DNA from: an uncultured bacterium
Lineage (GTDB): Bacteria > CALINM01
Direction of reading: 5' to 3'
Length of the DNA stretch: 6,872 nt
NCBI GenBank assembly: GCA_938045315.1
Contig: CALINM010000183.1
Location: forward strand, 1-6,872
The position numbers and the translations under genes were made by a program. This document shows, one piece after another, positions 8-6,705 of this stretch. How positions within the stretch are numbered: the stretch's first letter is position 1; the number at the start of each line of letters is the position of its first letter. Under the pieces are notes generated by a model. The model saw only the letters and a list, made by a program, of their open reading frames with translations, made no database searches and was not told the DNA's origin.

Positions 8-277
8 ATGAATATAGATGCAGTAAGGGAAATATCTATGGAAGTATTTAAGACAATGATTTATTTGTCCTTGCCCGTATTGTTTGTAAGTCTAATTGTA
101 GGACTTTTGGTCAGTTTATTCCAAGCGGTAACACAAATTCAAGAATTTACTTTAACCTTTGTTCCTAAAATGATTGCTGTGTTCCTAACAATTTTTTTTC
201 TCTCACCATGGATGGGAAAAGTAATAATTACTTTTACAATAAATCTTATCGATAAATTACCTCAGCTTGTGAAATAA
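8..277 (+). CDS. fliQ: FliQ, flagellar type III export gate protein
   Basis: FliQ is a small inner-membrane subunit of the flagellar export gate, where several copies pack with FliP and FliR to form the pore entrance. The 89-residue product has the usual family length and two hydrophobic segments, at about residues 16-38 and 50-72. Between them lies the family signature QAVTQIQEFTLTFVPKM (residues 39-55), and the chain ends in the typical LPQL tail. The start at 8 gives the standard family N-terminus; the in-frame ATG at 38 would remove ten residues. Only seven bases precede the start, so no ribosome-binding site can be judged. ATGA at 8-11 contains a TGA in another frame, so an upstream gene, expected to be fliP, could end there, but too little is visible to call it. 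The fliR start follows three bases after the stop. Confidence 0.96.
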   Translation: MNIDAVREISMEVFKTMIYLSLPVLFVSLIVGLLVSLFQAVTQIQEFTLTFVPKMIAVFLTIFFLSPWMGKVIITFTINLIDKLPQLVK

Positions 278-280
278 TTT

Positions 281-1043
281 ATGTTTGGCATTTTTGAATT
301 TGGTAAATATTTACCTTCTTTTCTCCTTGTTTTTTTAAGGGTAAGTATTATACTGCTTCTTTTTCCCGTATACGGTAATAGGAGTCTACCTGTTCAGTTT
401 AAAATAGGCCTGGTTATTCTTCTTACCATGATTATTTACAGTTTTATAGATGTTAGAATAAGTGTAAATACACTGCCTTTGATTATTACTCGTGAGGTTG
501 CAGTTGGTCTGATTATAGGATTTGCCTGCAAGTTGTTTTTTTTTCGTAATCGAGATGGCTGGACAACTTATAAGTAGTAGTATGGGACTTTCTGTGGCAT
601 CCATTTTTAATCCAGAGATGGGACAAAGTACGGAATTATCAAGATTATTTAGTATTATTGCCATTTTAATTTTTTTCTCAATAGATGGGCATCATGATTT
701 GATTTATTTACTAATAAAAAGTTACGAAGTTTTACCATTAGGTTCTGCAGACTTTGGTAGGATATTTCAAATATCGAAGGAGTTAATAGAAAAGATGTTT
801 TTTATTGCAATAAAACTCTCAGCCCCCACAGTCCTTCTTATGTTGATTACCAATATATATATGGCTTTTATAAGTAAAGCAGCACCTCAAATGAATGTTT
901 TCTTTGTTGGTTATCCAGTTTATATTTTTATCGGATTTCTAACAATTTTAATAGGTCTGCCATTGTTTATACTCGTAATCCAGGAAGGATTTTCAGGGCT
1001 TAAATATGATTTAGAAAAAATCTTGCTCATATTGAAAGGGTAA
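281..1043 (+). pseudogene. fliR: FliR, flagellar export gate protein; frame broken at a T9 run
   Basis: FliR is a multi-spanning membrane protein, present once per export gate beside FliP and FliQ. The region codes for a full FliR but in two frames. The first frame runs from ATG 281 to TAG 575-577 and gives a 98-residue product whose last ten residues look foreign. The second frame, one base on, holds the rest and stops at 1041-1043. It contains the hallmark EMAGQLISSSMGLS followed by FNPEMGQ, and the conserved hydrophobic C-terminal half. Dropping one T from the run at 536-544 joins them into 253 residues, a normal FliR length. The spacing between GF (80-81) and AGQ (93-95) is then 11 residues, as I recall for E. 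coli FliR. No other damage is visible, so the lesion is recent, an artefact, or bypassed by slippage. The start has only a weak ribosome-binding site and lies three bases after fliQ, which suggests coupling. Confidence 0.9.
536..544 (+). other. T9 homopolymer at the fliR frame junction
   Basis: Nine consecutive T lie exactly where the conserved FliR reading frame moves by +1. With eight T the codons read Leu-Phe-Phe-Phe-Val-Ile-Glu-Met-Ala-Gly-Gln, which matches the family. With nine T the frame reads Phe-Phe-Phe-Arg-Asn and stops at 575. The needed correction is loss of one base (or gain of two). A standard -1 ribosomal shift would enter the wrong frame. Runs this long are prone both to sequencing error and to RNA polymerase slippage. 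Confidence 0.9.
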
Positions 1044-1046
1044 TAG

Positions 1047-2081
1047 ATGCCAGATTTTGAAGAGAAAACTGAGCAGGCTACACCGCAGAAGAAGCAAAAA
1101 GCAAGGGAAAAAGGACAGATCCCTAGAAGTAGAGAATTAACCTCTATATTTGTTAGTTTTGTGATCTTCCTTTCCCTCTCACTGTATGGTAGCAAAATAG
1201 TATATGATTTGAAATATTTTATGAGGGATACTTTCAGCAATTTATACAAAAAAAACGTTATATTTACTTTAAATAATCTTTTTTTTGAGATGGCTTTTTT
1301 ACTTTTTCCTTTATTATTGATTGCCATGTCAATTGGTGCAGTCGTTTCAATAGCTCAGGGTGGATTTGTTTTAAAATCCTTTCAGTTTGAATTTAATAGA
1401 CTTAATCCAGTTGAGGGTTTTAAAAAAATCTTTTCTCCTCAAAGTTTTGTCGAACTTTTAAAGAGCCTTATGAAGTTTGCAGTTGGTGGAATCATTTTTT
1501 ATATAGTTGTAAGCAAAGTTGTTTTCGAATCGCCCCAGTTAATGAGACTCGATATGAATACTGTTGTTAGTCAGTCATTTTTTTTTATTAGAAAGGTTAC
1601 ACAGTATATACTTTTCGCATTTCTTGTACTTGCTATTCTGGACTATGGTTTGCAATATTGGCTTTATGAAAAATCGTTAAGGATGTCAAAACAGGAGATT
1701 AAAGAAGAATACAAAGAACAGGAAGGGGATCCTCTCGTAAAATCAAGGTTAAGGAGCCTTCAGAAAGAAATTAATCAAAGAAGAATGATTCAAGATGTGG
1801 CAAAGGCTACAGTTGTTATAACAAATCCGACTCATATAGCAGTTGCACTTAAATATAGTAAGGAATTGCATGCACCTAAAGTCGTAGCAAAAGGTGCAGA
1901 GTTAATTGCACAAAAAATTAAGGAAATAGCAAAAAAAAATAGTATTCCAGTTGTTGAAGATAAACCTTTGGCACGAGCTTTGTATAAATTAGAAATTGGT
2001 GAGTATATACCAGAAGAACTTTATAGGGCGGTGGCTAAGATAATTGCTTTTATTTACAAGAATAGTAATAAAACATTATAG
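1047..2081 (+). CDS. flhB: FlhB, flagellar export gate and substrate-specificity switch
   Basis: FlhB sits in the inner membrane beside the FliPQR pore. It switches export from rod/hook to filament proteins after cutting itself within a conserved NPTH motif. That motif is at residues 260-263 (bases 1824-1835), preceded by VVIT and followed by HIAVAL as in active members. The N-terminus EKTEQATPQKKQKAREKGQ (6-24) is the classic family signature. Four hydrophobic segments lie at about 31-53, 84-105, 140-160 and 186-207, followed by a charged linker and the soluble C-terminal domain. The 344-residue length is slightly below the common 350-380 but complete. GAAAGGG (1034-1040), six bases before the ATG, serves as ribosome-binding site, and the start is three bases after the fliR stop, so translation is probably coupled. 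The gene contains in-frame T9 (1578-1586) and A9 (1931-1939) runs. Confidence 0.97.
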   Translation: MPDFEEKTEQATPQKKQKAREKGQIPRSRELTSIFVSFVIFLSLSLYGSKIVYDLKYFMRDTFSNLYKKNVIFTLNNLFFEMAFLLFPLLLIAMSIGAVVSIAQGGFVLKSFQFEFNRLNPVEGFKKIFSPQSFVELLKSLMKFAVGGIIFYIVVSKVVFESPQLMRLDMNTVVSQSFFFIRKVTQYILFAFLVLAILDYGLQYWLYEKSLRMSKQEIKEEYKEQEGDPLVKSRLRSLQKEINQRRMIQDVAKATVVITNPTHIAVALKYSKELHAPKVVAKGAELIAQKIKEIAKKNSIPVVEDKPLARALYKLEIGEYIPEELYRAVAKIIAFIYKNSNKTL

Positions 2082-4126: not shown

Positions 4127-5150
4127 GAGTTTTACAGGTAAAAGTTATAGTGAAGCATTAGATTTAGTAAAAAAGGAATTTGGCCCTGATGCTGTGATAC
4201 TAGAAACGGAAGAGATAAAGGGAAAGGATTTTATAGTGAAGATTACTGCAGCAGTAGATTACGATAGCAATTACAATTATAAGGGAATTCATTTTTCCAG
4301 TTATCTAAAAAATGAAATTATACAGGAAAGGGAGTGTATTGATAATGATTACGATTTATCTAAGGAAATAAGAGAAATCAAAGATATGCTGATGGATATG
4401 AAGTCCCAGGGTAAATCTATTGACAAAATAAAAAGTAATTTTTTCACTAAATTAGGAATCAAAAATGAATTCATAAAGGAGTTTATGGATATAAATGATG
4501 ATGAAATTTATGAGAAAATGTCTTCGGAAATTAAGGCGGGATATAAATTATCTAATGGTAAAACAGTAATGCTTGTTGGTCCCACTGGTGTTGGTAAGAC
4601 TACAACGATTATCAAATTAGCATCCTTTGCAGTTAAAATAGGAAAAAAAGTGGGGATTATAAATTTAGATAGCTTCAGGTTAGGTGCCTTTGAACAAATG
4701 CGTGTTTTTTGCCAGCTTTTAGGAATACCCTTTTGCTCGGTAAATGATGTAGAAGAATTTAAATACGTTTATAGTGAATTTTCTAAGAATAAGAATATCA
4801 TTTTCATCGATACTACGGGACGCAATCCTAAAGACAAAAACTATTTAAATAAGTTAGGTAAAATAAGAGATTATGGATTGCCTGTGGAAGTTCACTTGAC
4901 TGTGAGTCTTAGCATGCAGGATGAAATTTTTATTAAGGCTAAAGAGAATTATCAACTGTTGGGAATTGATTATATTATTTTTACAAAGTTAGATGAAGCC
5001 TATAGTTATGGCAGTATCTACAATATTTTTAAAGTCTACGATAAGCCAATTTCTTACTTAACAAATGGTCAGAGGATTCCTAATGATATTCAGGCTGTTA
5101 GCCCTTCAAAACTTACAAATTTGATTTTAAGAAGAGGTGTTATTCAATGA
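4116..5150 (+). CDS. flhF: FlhF, SRP-type GTPase for flagellar placement
   Basis: FlhF is the third member of the SRP GTPase family, beside Ffh and FtsY. At the membrane it marks the site of flagellar assembly and is antagonised by FlhG. The N-terminus MKIKSFTGKSYSEALDLV followed by GPDAVIL (23-29) is diagnostic. Residues 81-100 look helical and probably form a coiled coil. The GTPase (G) domain shows the P-loop GPTGVGKTT (155-163), DSFRLGAFEQ (185-194), DTTGR (232-236, G3), TKLDE (290-294, G4) and NGQRIPNDI (317-325). The C-terminal part matches the family end. At 344 residues it is at the short end because the variable basic linker between residues 45 and 110 is brief. AGGGG (4102-4106), nine bases before the ATG, supports this start inside the flhA end. 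Its stop overlaps the flhG start in ATGA. Confidence 0.96.
   Translation: MKIKSFTGKSYSEALDLVKKEFGPDAVILETEEIKGKDFIVKITAAVDYDSNYNYKGIHFSSYLKNEIIQERECIDNDYDLSKEIREIKDMLMDMKSQGKSIDKIKSNFFTKLGIKNEFIKEFMDINDDEIYEKMSSEIKAGYKLSNGKTVMLVGPTGVGKTTTIIKLASFAVKIGKKVGIINLDSFRLGAFEQMRVFCQLLGIPFCSVNDVEEFKYVYSEFSKNKNIIFIDTTGRNPKDKNYLNKLGKIRDYGLPVEVHLTVSLSMQDEIFIKAKENYQLLGIDYIIFTKLDEAYSYGSIYNIFKVYDKPISYLTNGQRIPNDIQAVSPSKLTNLILRRGVIQ
5133..5139 (+). promoter_or_regulatory. Ribosome-binding site of flhG
   Basis: AGAGGTG, inside the flhF end, is a strong match to the 16S 3' tail and lies seven bases before ATG 5147. It fixes this start. The frame stays open back to 5102, but the upstream stretch has no ATG or GTG and no family motif. 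Confidence 0.75.
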
Positions 5151-5986
5151 AAAAGTATAAAAATAATAAATCAATAAAAACAATTACAATAGCAAGTGGT
5201 AAAGGTGGTGTGGGTAAGACTAATATCGTAGCTAATTTAGGAATAGCTCTAAGAAAAATGGGTAAAGAAGTCTTAATCTTTGATGCTGATCTTGGACTAA
5301 GTAATATCGATGTCCTTCTTTCTTTGGCCCCAAAATATAGTATTGATCATGTTATTAGGGGGGAAAAGAGTCTAAAAGAAATTATCGTTGAAGGCCCCGC
5401 AGGCATTAGAGTACTTCCTGCAGGTAGTGGAATTCAAGAACTAACAAGTTTAAATGAGTTTCAGAGGTTAAGGATTTTAGAAGAGTTTGAAAATTATAAT
5501 GAAAATATAGATATAATGTTAATCGATACATCTGCTGGTATTTCTGAAAATGTATCTTTCTTCTGTTCTGCTGTCCAGGAAGTCATTATTTTGACAACAC
5601 CAGAACCTACGTCTATCACTGATGCTTATGCACTTATAAAGATTTTGCATAATAAGTATAAGGAGGAAAAGTTTAGCCTGGTGGTAAACTTAATAAAAAA
5701 TGAGGATGAGGCAAAGCTGGTTTATAAGAGGCTTGCTATGGTAACAGAAAAATTTTTAAGAATTGATCTTAGCTATTTAGGTTTTGTTAGATATGATGAA
5801 AATGTAAAAAGGGCTGTAAAAGAACAGTCTGCTTTTATTGAATTATACCCCAACACTTTTGCAAGTAAGGATATTATTGATTTGGCGAATAAAATTCTTA
5901 ATTCAGAAGTTAAATGTAAAGGTAGTATGCAGTTTTTTTTAAAAAATTTTTTAATGGGTCTTAAAGAAGAGGTATGTAGTTTATGA
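5147..5986 (+). CDS. flhG: FlhG (FleN/YlxH), MinD-like ATPase
   Basis: FlhG is a ParA/MinD-family ATPase that dimerises on ATP, binds the membrane and limits flagellar number, partly by stimulating the FlhF GTPase. The deviant Walker A motif GKGGVGKT is at 18-25, with the signature lysine at 19. DADLGLSNID (46-55) is the Walker A' segment, and LIDTSAGIS (125-133) is Walker B with the family's typical DT-AG form. TTPEPTSITDAYALIK (150-165) is the classic FlhG/MinD signature. The C-terminal MQFFLKNFLMGLKEE (261-275) looks like an amphipathic membrane-targeting helix. The N-terminus before the first strand is only about ten residues and lacks the DQAxxLR motif that activates FlhF in several species. 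The 279-residue length is otherwise normal. The gene overlaps flhF and fliA by four bases each (ATGA), indicating strong translational coupling. Its neighbours separate it from MinD proper. Confidence 0.95.
   Translation: MKKYKNNKSIKTITIASGKGGVGKTNIVANLGIALRKMGKEVLIFDADLGLSNIDVLLSLAPKYSIDHVIRGEKSLKEIIVEGPAGIRVLPAGSGIQELTSLNEFQRLRILEEFENYNENIDIMLIDTSAGISENVSFFCSAVQEVIILTTPEPTSITDAYALIKILHNKYKEEKFSLVVNLIKNEDEAKLVYKRLAMVTEKFLRIDLSYLGFVRYDENVKRAVKEQSAFIELYPNTFASKDIIDLANKILNSEVKCKGSMQFFLKNFLMGLKEEVCSL
5965..5972 (+). promoter_or_regulatory. Ribosome-binding site of fliA
   Basis: AGAAGAGG within the flhG end lies ten bases before ATG 5983. The spacing is slightly long, but the ATGA overlap would allow re-initiation by ribosomes that finish flhG. 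Confidence 0.6.
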
Positions 5987-6705
5987 AAGAGGTACTAGTT
6001 AAATATTCTGTAGATGAAAAGGAAGAAATTATAAATAATTTTATCCCCTATATTAAGTATACAGCATCCAGGTTAAGTTGGAGGCTTCCAGCTTGTCTTA
6101 CGGAAGATGATTTAATAAGCGCTGGAATTATTGGTTTACTGGATGCGTTAGAAAGGTATGATCCAAAAGTTGCTAAATTAAATACTTATGTTGAATATAG
6201 AATAAAAGGTTCTATGTTAGACCTGATCGAGAAAAACCAGTTTTTACCTAAACATTTAAATAAAAAGATTTTTGATTTGAAAAAGACTATAGACCAGTTA
6301 GAAATAGAGTTGGGTAGATGCCCTGAAGATGAAGAAATAGCAGGTAAATGTGGTATAACTCTTGAAGAGTATTATGAAGTTTTATGCGATATGAACAAAT
6401 TAAAGAACTTCTCCTTTGAGATATTGGATAACAATAATGAAATAGTTAGTCTATTAGATTTAGTCTCAGATTCAGAAGACAATCAACCTGAAAAAGTTTT
6501 AGAGAAAAATCAATTAGTAGAAAAAATTGCTACTGCGATAGATAAACTAAGTGAGAAAGAAAAAATAATAATAAATTTATATTATTATGAGGAGCTTACA
6601 ATGAAAGAAATTGCAAAAGTATTGGGGTTGACTGAGGGTAGAGTTTCCCAAATACATAATCAGGCTATGGGAAAGCTTAAGTTAAAGTTAATGGATTATA
6701 AATAA
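5983..6705 (+). CDS. fliA: Flagellar sigma factor sigma-28 (FliA/SigD)
   Basis: This alternative sigma factor directs RNA polymerase to late flagellar and chemotaxis promoters; in most bacteria it is held back by FlgM, which is not seen here. The 240-residue length matches E. coli FliA (239). Region 2 (about 16-90) has LPACLTEDDLISAGIIGLLDA and ERYDP, followed by NTYVEYRIKGSMLD. Region 3 follows, with LGRCPEDEEIA (110-120). Region 4 (about 184-236) has LSEKEKIIINLYYYEELT and the helix-turn-helix EIAKVLGLTEGRVSQIHNQA (209-228). In a gap-free alignment to E. coli FliA with an offset of one, recalled from memory, promoter-contact positions Arg84, Asp87, Trp88 and Arg91 become Glu83, Gln86, Phe87 and Lys90, so -10 recognition may differ. 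The start is supported by this alignment and by the ATGA overlap with flhG. Its place at the end of the export-gate operon suggests it is made together with early components. Confidence 0.95.
   Translation: MKEVLVKYSVDEKEEIINNFIPYIKYTASRLSWRLPACLTEDDLISAGIIGLLDALERYDPKVAKLNTYVEYRIKGSMLDLIEKNQFLPKHLNKKIFDLKKTIDQLEIELGRCPEDEEIAGKCGITLEEYYEVLCDMNKLKNFSFEILDNNNEIVSLLDLVSDSEDNQPEKVLEKNQLVEKIATAIDKLSEKEKIIINLYYYEELTMKEIAKVLGLTEGRVSQIHNQAMGKLKLKLMDYK

What the first reader, a model, noticed from the sequence alone, without database searches (positions are those of the whole stretch)
281..1043. fliR split across two frames at a T9 run, otherwise intact
Both halves of FliR are well conserved, but the second is in the +1 frame, and the change falls exactly at nine T (536-544). 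One T fewer restores a 253-residue FliR with correct motif spacing. An unrepaired shift would remove an essential gate subunit and leave about 470 bases untranslated before flhB, with possible polarity. Transcriptional slippage on runs of about nine A or T is known in A+T-rich genomes and, to my knowledge, in Shigella type III secretion genes (mxiE, spa13). The same mechanism could set FliR dose here. The competing explanation, a homopolymer sequencing error, is at least as likely.
Basis: partly seen in the sequence, partly recalled or inferred. Interest (0 to 1): 0.6.

Follow-up and report, generated by a model that had tools for sequence, protein, structure and literature searches.

The report
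Flagellar fliR broken at T9 run
In this uncultured bacterium's draft genome, the flagellum export gene fliR is knocked out of frame by one base at a run of nine T; this is either a natural on/off length change of a mutable run, as already known for the same gene in Campylobacter, or a sequencing error, and nothing in the sequence shows that the cell uses it as a programmed device.

Summary
FliR lies in two frames that meet at a T9 run (536-544). Read with one base fewer, it is a 253-aa FliR above NCBIfam's FliR cut-off, and it aligns without gaps across the run with 28 homologues. The other genes of the contig, and at least 14 other complete flagellar genes in the genome, are intact, so this is one isolated and probably recent lesion, not operon decay.

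Interpretation: a one-base length change of a mutable poly-T tract, giving a FliR-OFF allele. There is direct precedent: a reversible T8/T7 frameshift in Campylobacter jejuni fliR, and similar tracts in C. coli flhA and Helicobacter pylori fliP. A homopolymer consensus error remains nearly as likely. However, in half of the genome 283 of 287 coding A/T runs of 8 or more are in frame, and the other three breaks lie in genes or neighbourhoods with further lesions, so there is no sign of a generally high error rate.

Regulated transcriptional slippage is not supported. The run is absent from the nearest homologue. Rescue needs a -1 or +2 product, whereas RNA polymerase mostly adds one base, which here leads to an immediate stop. 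One side result: sense-strand T9 runs are rare in this genome's genes.

The parts
8..277 (+). fliQ (89 aa; the contig begins just before it); carries a T8 at 192-199
   Evidence: Bac_export_3 E 1.2e-26; runs
281..577 (+). fliR, first part in the 0-frame, 98 aa, ending at TAG 575-577; the ten residues after the run (RNRDGWTTYK) are out-of-frame sequence
536..544 (+). T9 run at which the frame changes; the downstream frame fits a run one base shorter
   Evidence: gap-free alignment with 28 homologues
545..1043 (+). fliR, second part in the +1 frame; possible internal restart at ATG 555
   Evidence: Bac_export_1 E 1.3e-43
1047..2081 (+). flhB, intact, 344 aa, with its own in-frame T9 at 1578-1586, T8 at 1279-1286 and A9 at 1931-1939
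   Evidence: TIGR00328 367.9 bits
2096..4126 (+). flhA, intact, 676 aa
   Evidence: TIGR01398 871.7 bits
4116..5150 (+). flhF, intact
   Evidence: TIGR03499 (164.5 bits, just under the cut-off of 174.15)
5147..5986 (+). flhG-like MinD ATPase, intact
   Evidence: TIGR01969; named flhG from its position
5983..6705 (+). fliA sigma factor, intact
   Evidence: TIGR02479 234.7 bits

Best explanation
fliR in this genome is a frame-shifted (OFF) allele made by a one-base length change in a mutable poly-T tract (eight T in the functional form, nine here). The tract exists because three phenylalanine codons in a membrane helix are written with T-rich codons in a genome of 32% G+C. DNA polymerase slippage changes its length and can reverse it, so the sampled cells carry, at least in majority, a FliR truncated near residue 87 and lack a working flagellar export gate until the run reverts. 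Shown: the break, its one-base nature, the intact surroundings. Inferred: that the DNA truly has nine T, that the population is mixed, that it reverts, and that it affects motility.
For: Single lesion exactly at the run, otherwise full-length FliR. All other genes on the contig are intact, as are the other flagellar genes seen: flgA, F, G, H, I, J, K, L, flagellin, fliD, fliS and fliG, fliH, flgD, flgE; fliF and fliI are seen in part. So the lesion is recent and not part of decay. Of the coding A/T runs of 8 or more in 910 kb, 283 of 287 are in frame, so called run lengths are usually right. Precedent: C. jejuni fliR T8/T7 phase variation with motile revertants, about 70% of reads OFF in a stock culture (PMC7677240); C. 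coli flhA T8/T7, H. pylori fliP and B. subtilis swrA (PMC2831843).
Against: No reads, second strain or conspecific genome could be examined. The only genus and family members held (G001, G002) have no fliR, flhA or flhB in their assemblies. A single consensus error would look identical. The T-run content of fliQ, fliR and flhB is no higher than their amino acids predict, so nothing shows that the tract was selected as a switch.
Confidence: 0.5

Rival explanations
1. Consensus error: the genome has eight T and the draft assembly reports nine; FliR is normal.
For: The genome is a fragmented draft (244 contigs). A one-base homopolymer error is a common artefact of this kind. All four frame breaks found at runs of 8 or more have the same direction, one extra base. 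Motility genes are otherwise intact.
Against: In the same assembly 283 of 287 assessable coding runs of 8 or more are in frame, including an in-frame T9 and an A9 in flhB next door. The other three breaks lie in genes or neighbourhoods with further lesions, which fits real pseudogenes. G001 and G002 show the same scarcity of runs of 10, so G000 is not abnormal.
Confidence: 0.37
2. Transcriptional slippage on the T9 makes a fraction of fliR mRNA in frame, so that FliR is made at reduced dose, by accident or as a regulated device.
For: Bacterial RNA polymerase slips efficiently on nine A or T, and T. thermophilus dnaX and Shigella T3SS genes use it (PMC5009743). E. coli RNA polymerase prefers poly(T) (PMC6260861). 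Sense-strand T9 is avoided in this genome's genes: 7 seen, 21.5 expected, and the ratio of runs of 9 or more to runs of 8 is lower than for sense A (p 0.002) or outside genes (p 0.0006), as expected if T9 transcripts slip.
Against: Rescue needs loss of one base or gain of two. Single-base insertion prevails in A/T runs (PMC5574713) and here runs into TAA 547-549. The run is not conserved in L031, the gene is not richer in T runs than chance, no stimulatory structure follows, and flhB with its own T9 reads in frame.
Confidence: 0.1
3. Plain irreversible null: motility is being lost and fliR is the first gene to go.
For: Two sensory or chemotaxis proteins and a porin in this genome look like multi-lesion pseudogenes. 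G002 has no match to any of the flagellar families searched for in it.
Against: The other flagellar genes seen are intact, and the second half of FliR keeps its conserved residues.
Confidence: 0.03

Closest known systems
Campylobacter jejuni fliR phase variation (T8/T7 tract; PMC7677240)
   Same: Same gene, same kind of tract (poly-T on the sense strand), one-base change truncating FliR, low-G+C genome
   Different: There the change is a one-base deletion near codon 29 giving a 39-residue product, with proven reversion and loss of motility; here it is an insertion-type change at codons 86-88, with no population or phenotype data
Campylobacter coli flhA poly-T and Helicobacter pylori fliP homopolymer phase variation (cited in PMC2831843)
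   Same: Export-gate genes switched by one-base length change of a homopolymer
   Different: Different genes (and a different base in fliP, from memory); reversible switching shown by experiment there
Shigella spa13/mxiE and Thermus thermophilus dnaX transcriptional slippage (PMC5009743)
   Same: Runs of about nine A/T; type III export genes in the Shigella case
   Different: There both products are made and RNA heterogeneity was measured; here the run is unconserved and the main slippage product does not restore the frame

Membership tests
FliR (flagellar export gate) | Full-length match to the FliR equivalog model above cut-off | tested here: met
   Read-through protein 185.1 bits, cut-off 168.6; as encoded, neither half reaches the cut-off
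FliR (flagellar export gate) | One open reading frame | tested here: not met
   Frame change at 536-544
Phase-variable homopolymer gene (contingency locus) | Frame controlled by a homopolymer long enough to slip at high rate (7-9 or more) | tested here: met
   T9 at the frame change
Phase-variable homopolymer gene (contingency locus) | Both tract lengths occur among cells or strains, and revert | not testable with these tools
   No reads and no conspecific fliR held
Phase-variable homopolymer gene (contingency locus) | Tract over-represented or conserved beyond what amino acids and codon usage give (supporting, not strictly defining) | tested here: not met
   fliQ, fliR and flhB T-run counts match synonymous shuffles; no long T run in L031
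Programmed transcriptional slippage | Heterogeneous mRNA and both products made | not testable with these tools
   Needs cDNA and peptides
Programmed transcriptional slippage | Conserved slippery run in relatives | tested here: inconclusive
   L031, the closest homologue found (44% identical), has 3 T at the site; no nearer relative with fliR is held
Programmed ribosomal frameshift (+1) | Stop or slow codon at the shift site and a downstream stimulatory structure | tested here: not met
   Next 0-frame codon is CGT, stop only at 575; downstream fold weaker than shuffles, z +1.3

The most novel reading that the evidence does not exclude
In this sparsely sampled bacterial lineage (three genomes held for the whole phylum) the T9 run in fliR is used: RNA polymerase slippage makes a minority of in-frame message, so that the number of export gates per cell is set by slippage rather than by a DNA switch.
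Probability: 0.06. Interest if true: 0.6.

Novelty: new member of a known kind. Interest (0 to 1): 0.24.

Why it matters
If the nine T are real, it adds a member of a deep, sparsely sampled lineage to the few in which an export-gate gene is silenced by a homopolymer. It also suggests a simple general cause: phenylalanine-rich membrane helices in A+T-rich genomes write themselves as poly-T. For annotation it is a reminder that such breaks should not be read as loss of motility without reads. The separate finding that T9, but not A9, is avoided on the sense strand of genes is a testable hint of a transcript-level slippage cost.

Tried and rejected
Same-genus, family, order and phylum search for a second fliR: only three genomes held and no other fliR. 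No match among phage records. Programmed +1 ribosomal frameshifting rejected. General decay of flagellar genes rejected. A technical loss of long runs peculiar to this assembly rejected, because relatives show the same scarcity of T10. A four-letter-codon read-through translation misread other places, so the protein was joined in a script. A functional two-piece FliR by restart at ATG 555 was considered; unlikely, because the split falls inside a hydrophobic helix of the FliP-like part (own knowledge of the FliPQR structure, not tested).

Full report
What is there. The window is a whole contig (C183, 6872 bases) of a 1.86-Mb, 244-contig draft genome, 91.8% complete. It carries fliQ, fliR, flhB, flhA, flhF, flhG-like and fliA in one direction. 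fliR starts at ATG 281; its frame ends at TAG 575-577. The rest of FliR is in the +1 frame up to TAA 1041-1043. The two parts match adjoining stretches of the same Pfam profile, 2-78 and 75-228. The frame change coincides with nine T at 536-544.

Is it one base? Reading the gene with one T fewer gives 253 residues, the same length as FliR of the closest homologue found (L031, 44% identical over 246 residues). An alignment with 28 homologues has no gap over the 41 residues around the run. The joined protein passes NCBIfam's FliR cut-off; neither half does. No second lesion is seen in fliR.

Is the neighbourhood decaying? No. All other genes of the contig are intact (fliQ). Elsewhere in the genome flgA, flgF, flgG, flgH, flgI, flgJ, flgK, flgL, flagellin, fliD, fliS, fliG, fliH, flgD and flgE are open and full-length, and fliF and fliI are seen in part (gene names by reading the translations, not each by a profile search). 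fliP is not found in the draft; the contig starts at fliQ, so this is probably a gap.

How reliable are runs in this assembly? I fetched 100 stretches, 910 kb, about half of the genome. A hexamer coding model gave the frame on both sides of each A/T run. For runs of eight or more, 283 were in the same frame on both sides. Of the 18 'shift' calls, by-eye reading of the peptides left four true breaks, the rest being gene-gene junctions: fliR (T9); a Cache-HAMP histidine kinase (L153, A9), which also has a stop and a T7 break; an outer-membrane barrel protein (L209, A8), which also has an in-frame TAA; and a multihaem cytochrome (L213, A8) with a damaged neighbour. So fliR is the only clean single break. 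The assembly is therefore not full of run errors, but one error in about 280 runs cannot be excluded. All four breaks are of the one-base-extra type, which is a weak warning of a shared technical or mutational bias.

Run-length limits in this genome. Inside open frames, A/T runs of 5-8 are slightly commoner than synonymous shuffles predict; A9 is as expected (56 seen, 61.5 expected), T9 is rare (7 seen, 21.5 expected), and runs of 10 or more are almost absent. The ratio of runs of 9 or more to runs of 8 is lower for sense-strand T (8:103) than for sense-strand A (66:276; Fisher p 0.002) or outside genes (34:115; p 0.0006). Mutation and sequencing should treat the strands alike, so the strand difference points to a cost at RNA or protein level; E. 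coli RNA polymerase slips more on poly(T) (PMC6260861). Contigs were partly chosen because they hold 9-base runs, which inflates all 9-base counts but should not favour one strand. G001, G002 and the genome of L031 also have very few T10 runs. flhB has an in-frame T9 only 1 kb downstream. T-run counts in fliQ, fliR and flhB equal those of synonymous shuffles, so the tract follows from Phe-Phe-Phe in a membrane helix and A+T-rich codon usage, not from selection for a switch.

Mechanism. The simplest reading is a length change in a slippery DNA tract. This is known for the same gene: in C. jejuni a one-base deletion in a T8 tract of fliR abolishes motility, about 70% of reads in a stock culture carried it, and selection on soft agar brought the full-length gene back (PMC7677240). 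C. coli flhA (T8 to T7 at 3e-4, T7 to T8 at 7e-6), H. pylori fliP and B. subtilis swrA behave alike (PMC2831843). Rescue by RNA polymerase is possible in principle: nine A or T suffice in bacteria and slippage is used in T. thermophilus dnaX and Shigella spa13 and mxiE (PMC5009743). But A/T-run slippage mostly inserts one base (PMC5574713), which here leads to TAA at 547-549; only loss of one or gain of two would help. That study also found no transcription error that restored a frame in Buchnera, although another study reported 12-50% corrected transcripts in endosymbionts (as cited in PMC5009743). A +1 ribosomal shift has no site features. ATG 555, about 20 bases before the stop of the first part, could allow restart of the C-terminal part; this would also soften polarity on flhB (inference).

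Verdict. Observation right; the break is single and probably recent, and is either a true OFF allele (0.5) or an error (0.37). Use of slippage to set FliR dose is unsupported (0.1). It is a new instance of a known kind. Raw reads would settle it.

Noticed in passing
L153 9336-11291 (G000 contig C70): A Cache-HAMP sensor histidine kinase with an A9 frame break, an in-frame TAA and a T7 frame break: a multi-lesion pseudogene, next to an intact NtrC-type response regulator.
   Followed up: partly
L209 1148-4049 and L213 1694-2914 (G000 contigs C24, C31): Multihaem cytochrome and outer-membrane barrel genes (extracellular electron transfer type) with frame breaks and an in-frame stop; damaged genes or poorly assembled stretches.
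   Followed up: partly
L175 2320-3434 (G000 contig C133): A methyl-accepting chemotaxis protein signalling domain broken in several places.
   Followed up: no
G000 coding sequences (L115-L214): T9 runs are three-fold depleted on the sense strand of genes while A9 is not, and runs of 10 or more are nearly absent; suggests a transcript-level cost of U9 runs.
   Followed up: partly
G001, G002 (the only other genomes held for the phylum): G001 has flagellin, fliD, fliS and fliG but no detectable fliP, fliR, flhB, flhA or rod/hook proteins; G002 has none of the flagellar families searched. Assembly gaps or partial flagellar loss in the lineage.
   Followed up: partly
window 8-2081: fliQ, fliR and flhB hold four T runs of 8 or 9 in 2 kb, as their Phe-rich helices predict; export-gate genes of A+T-rich genomes look like natural slippage hot spots.
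   Followed up: yes
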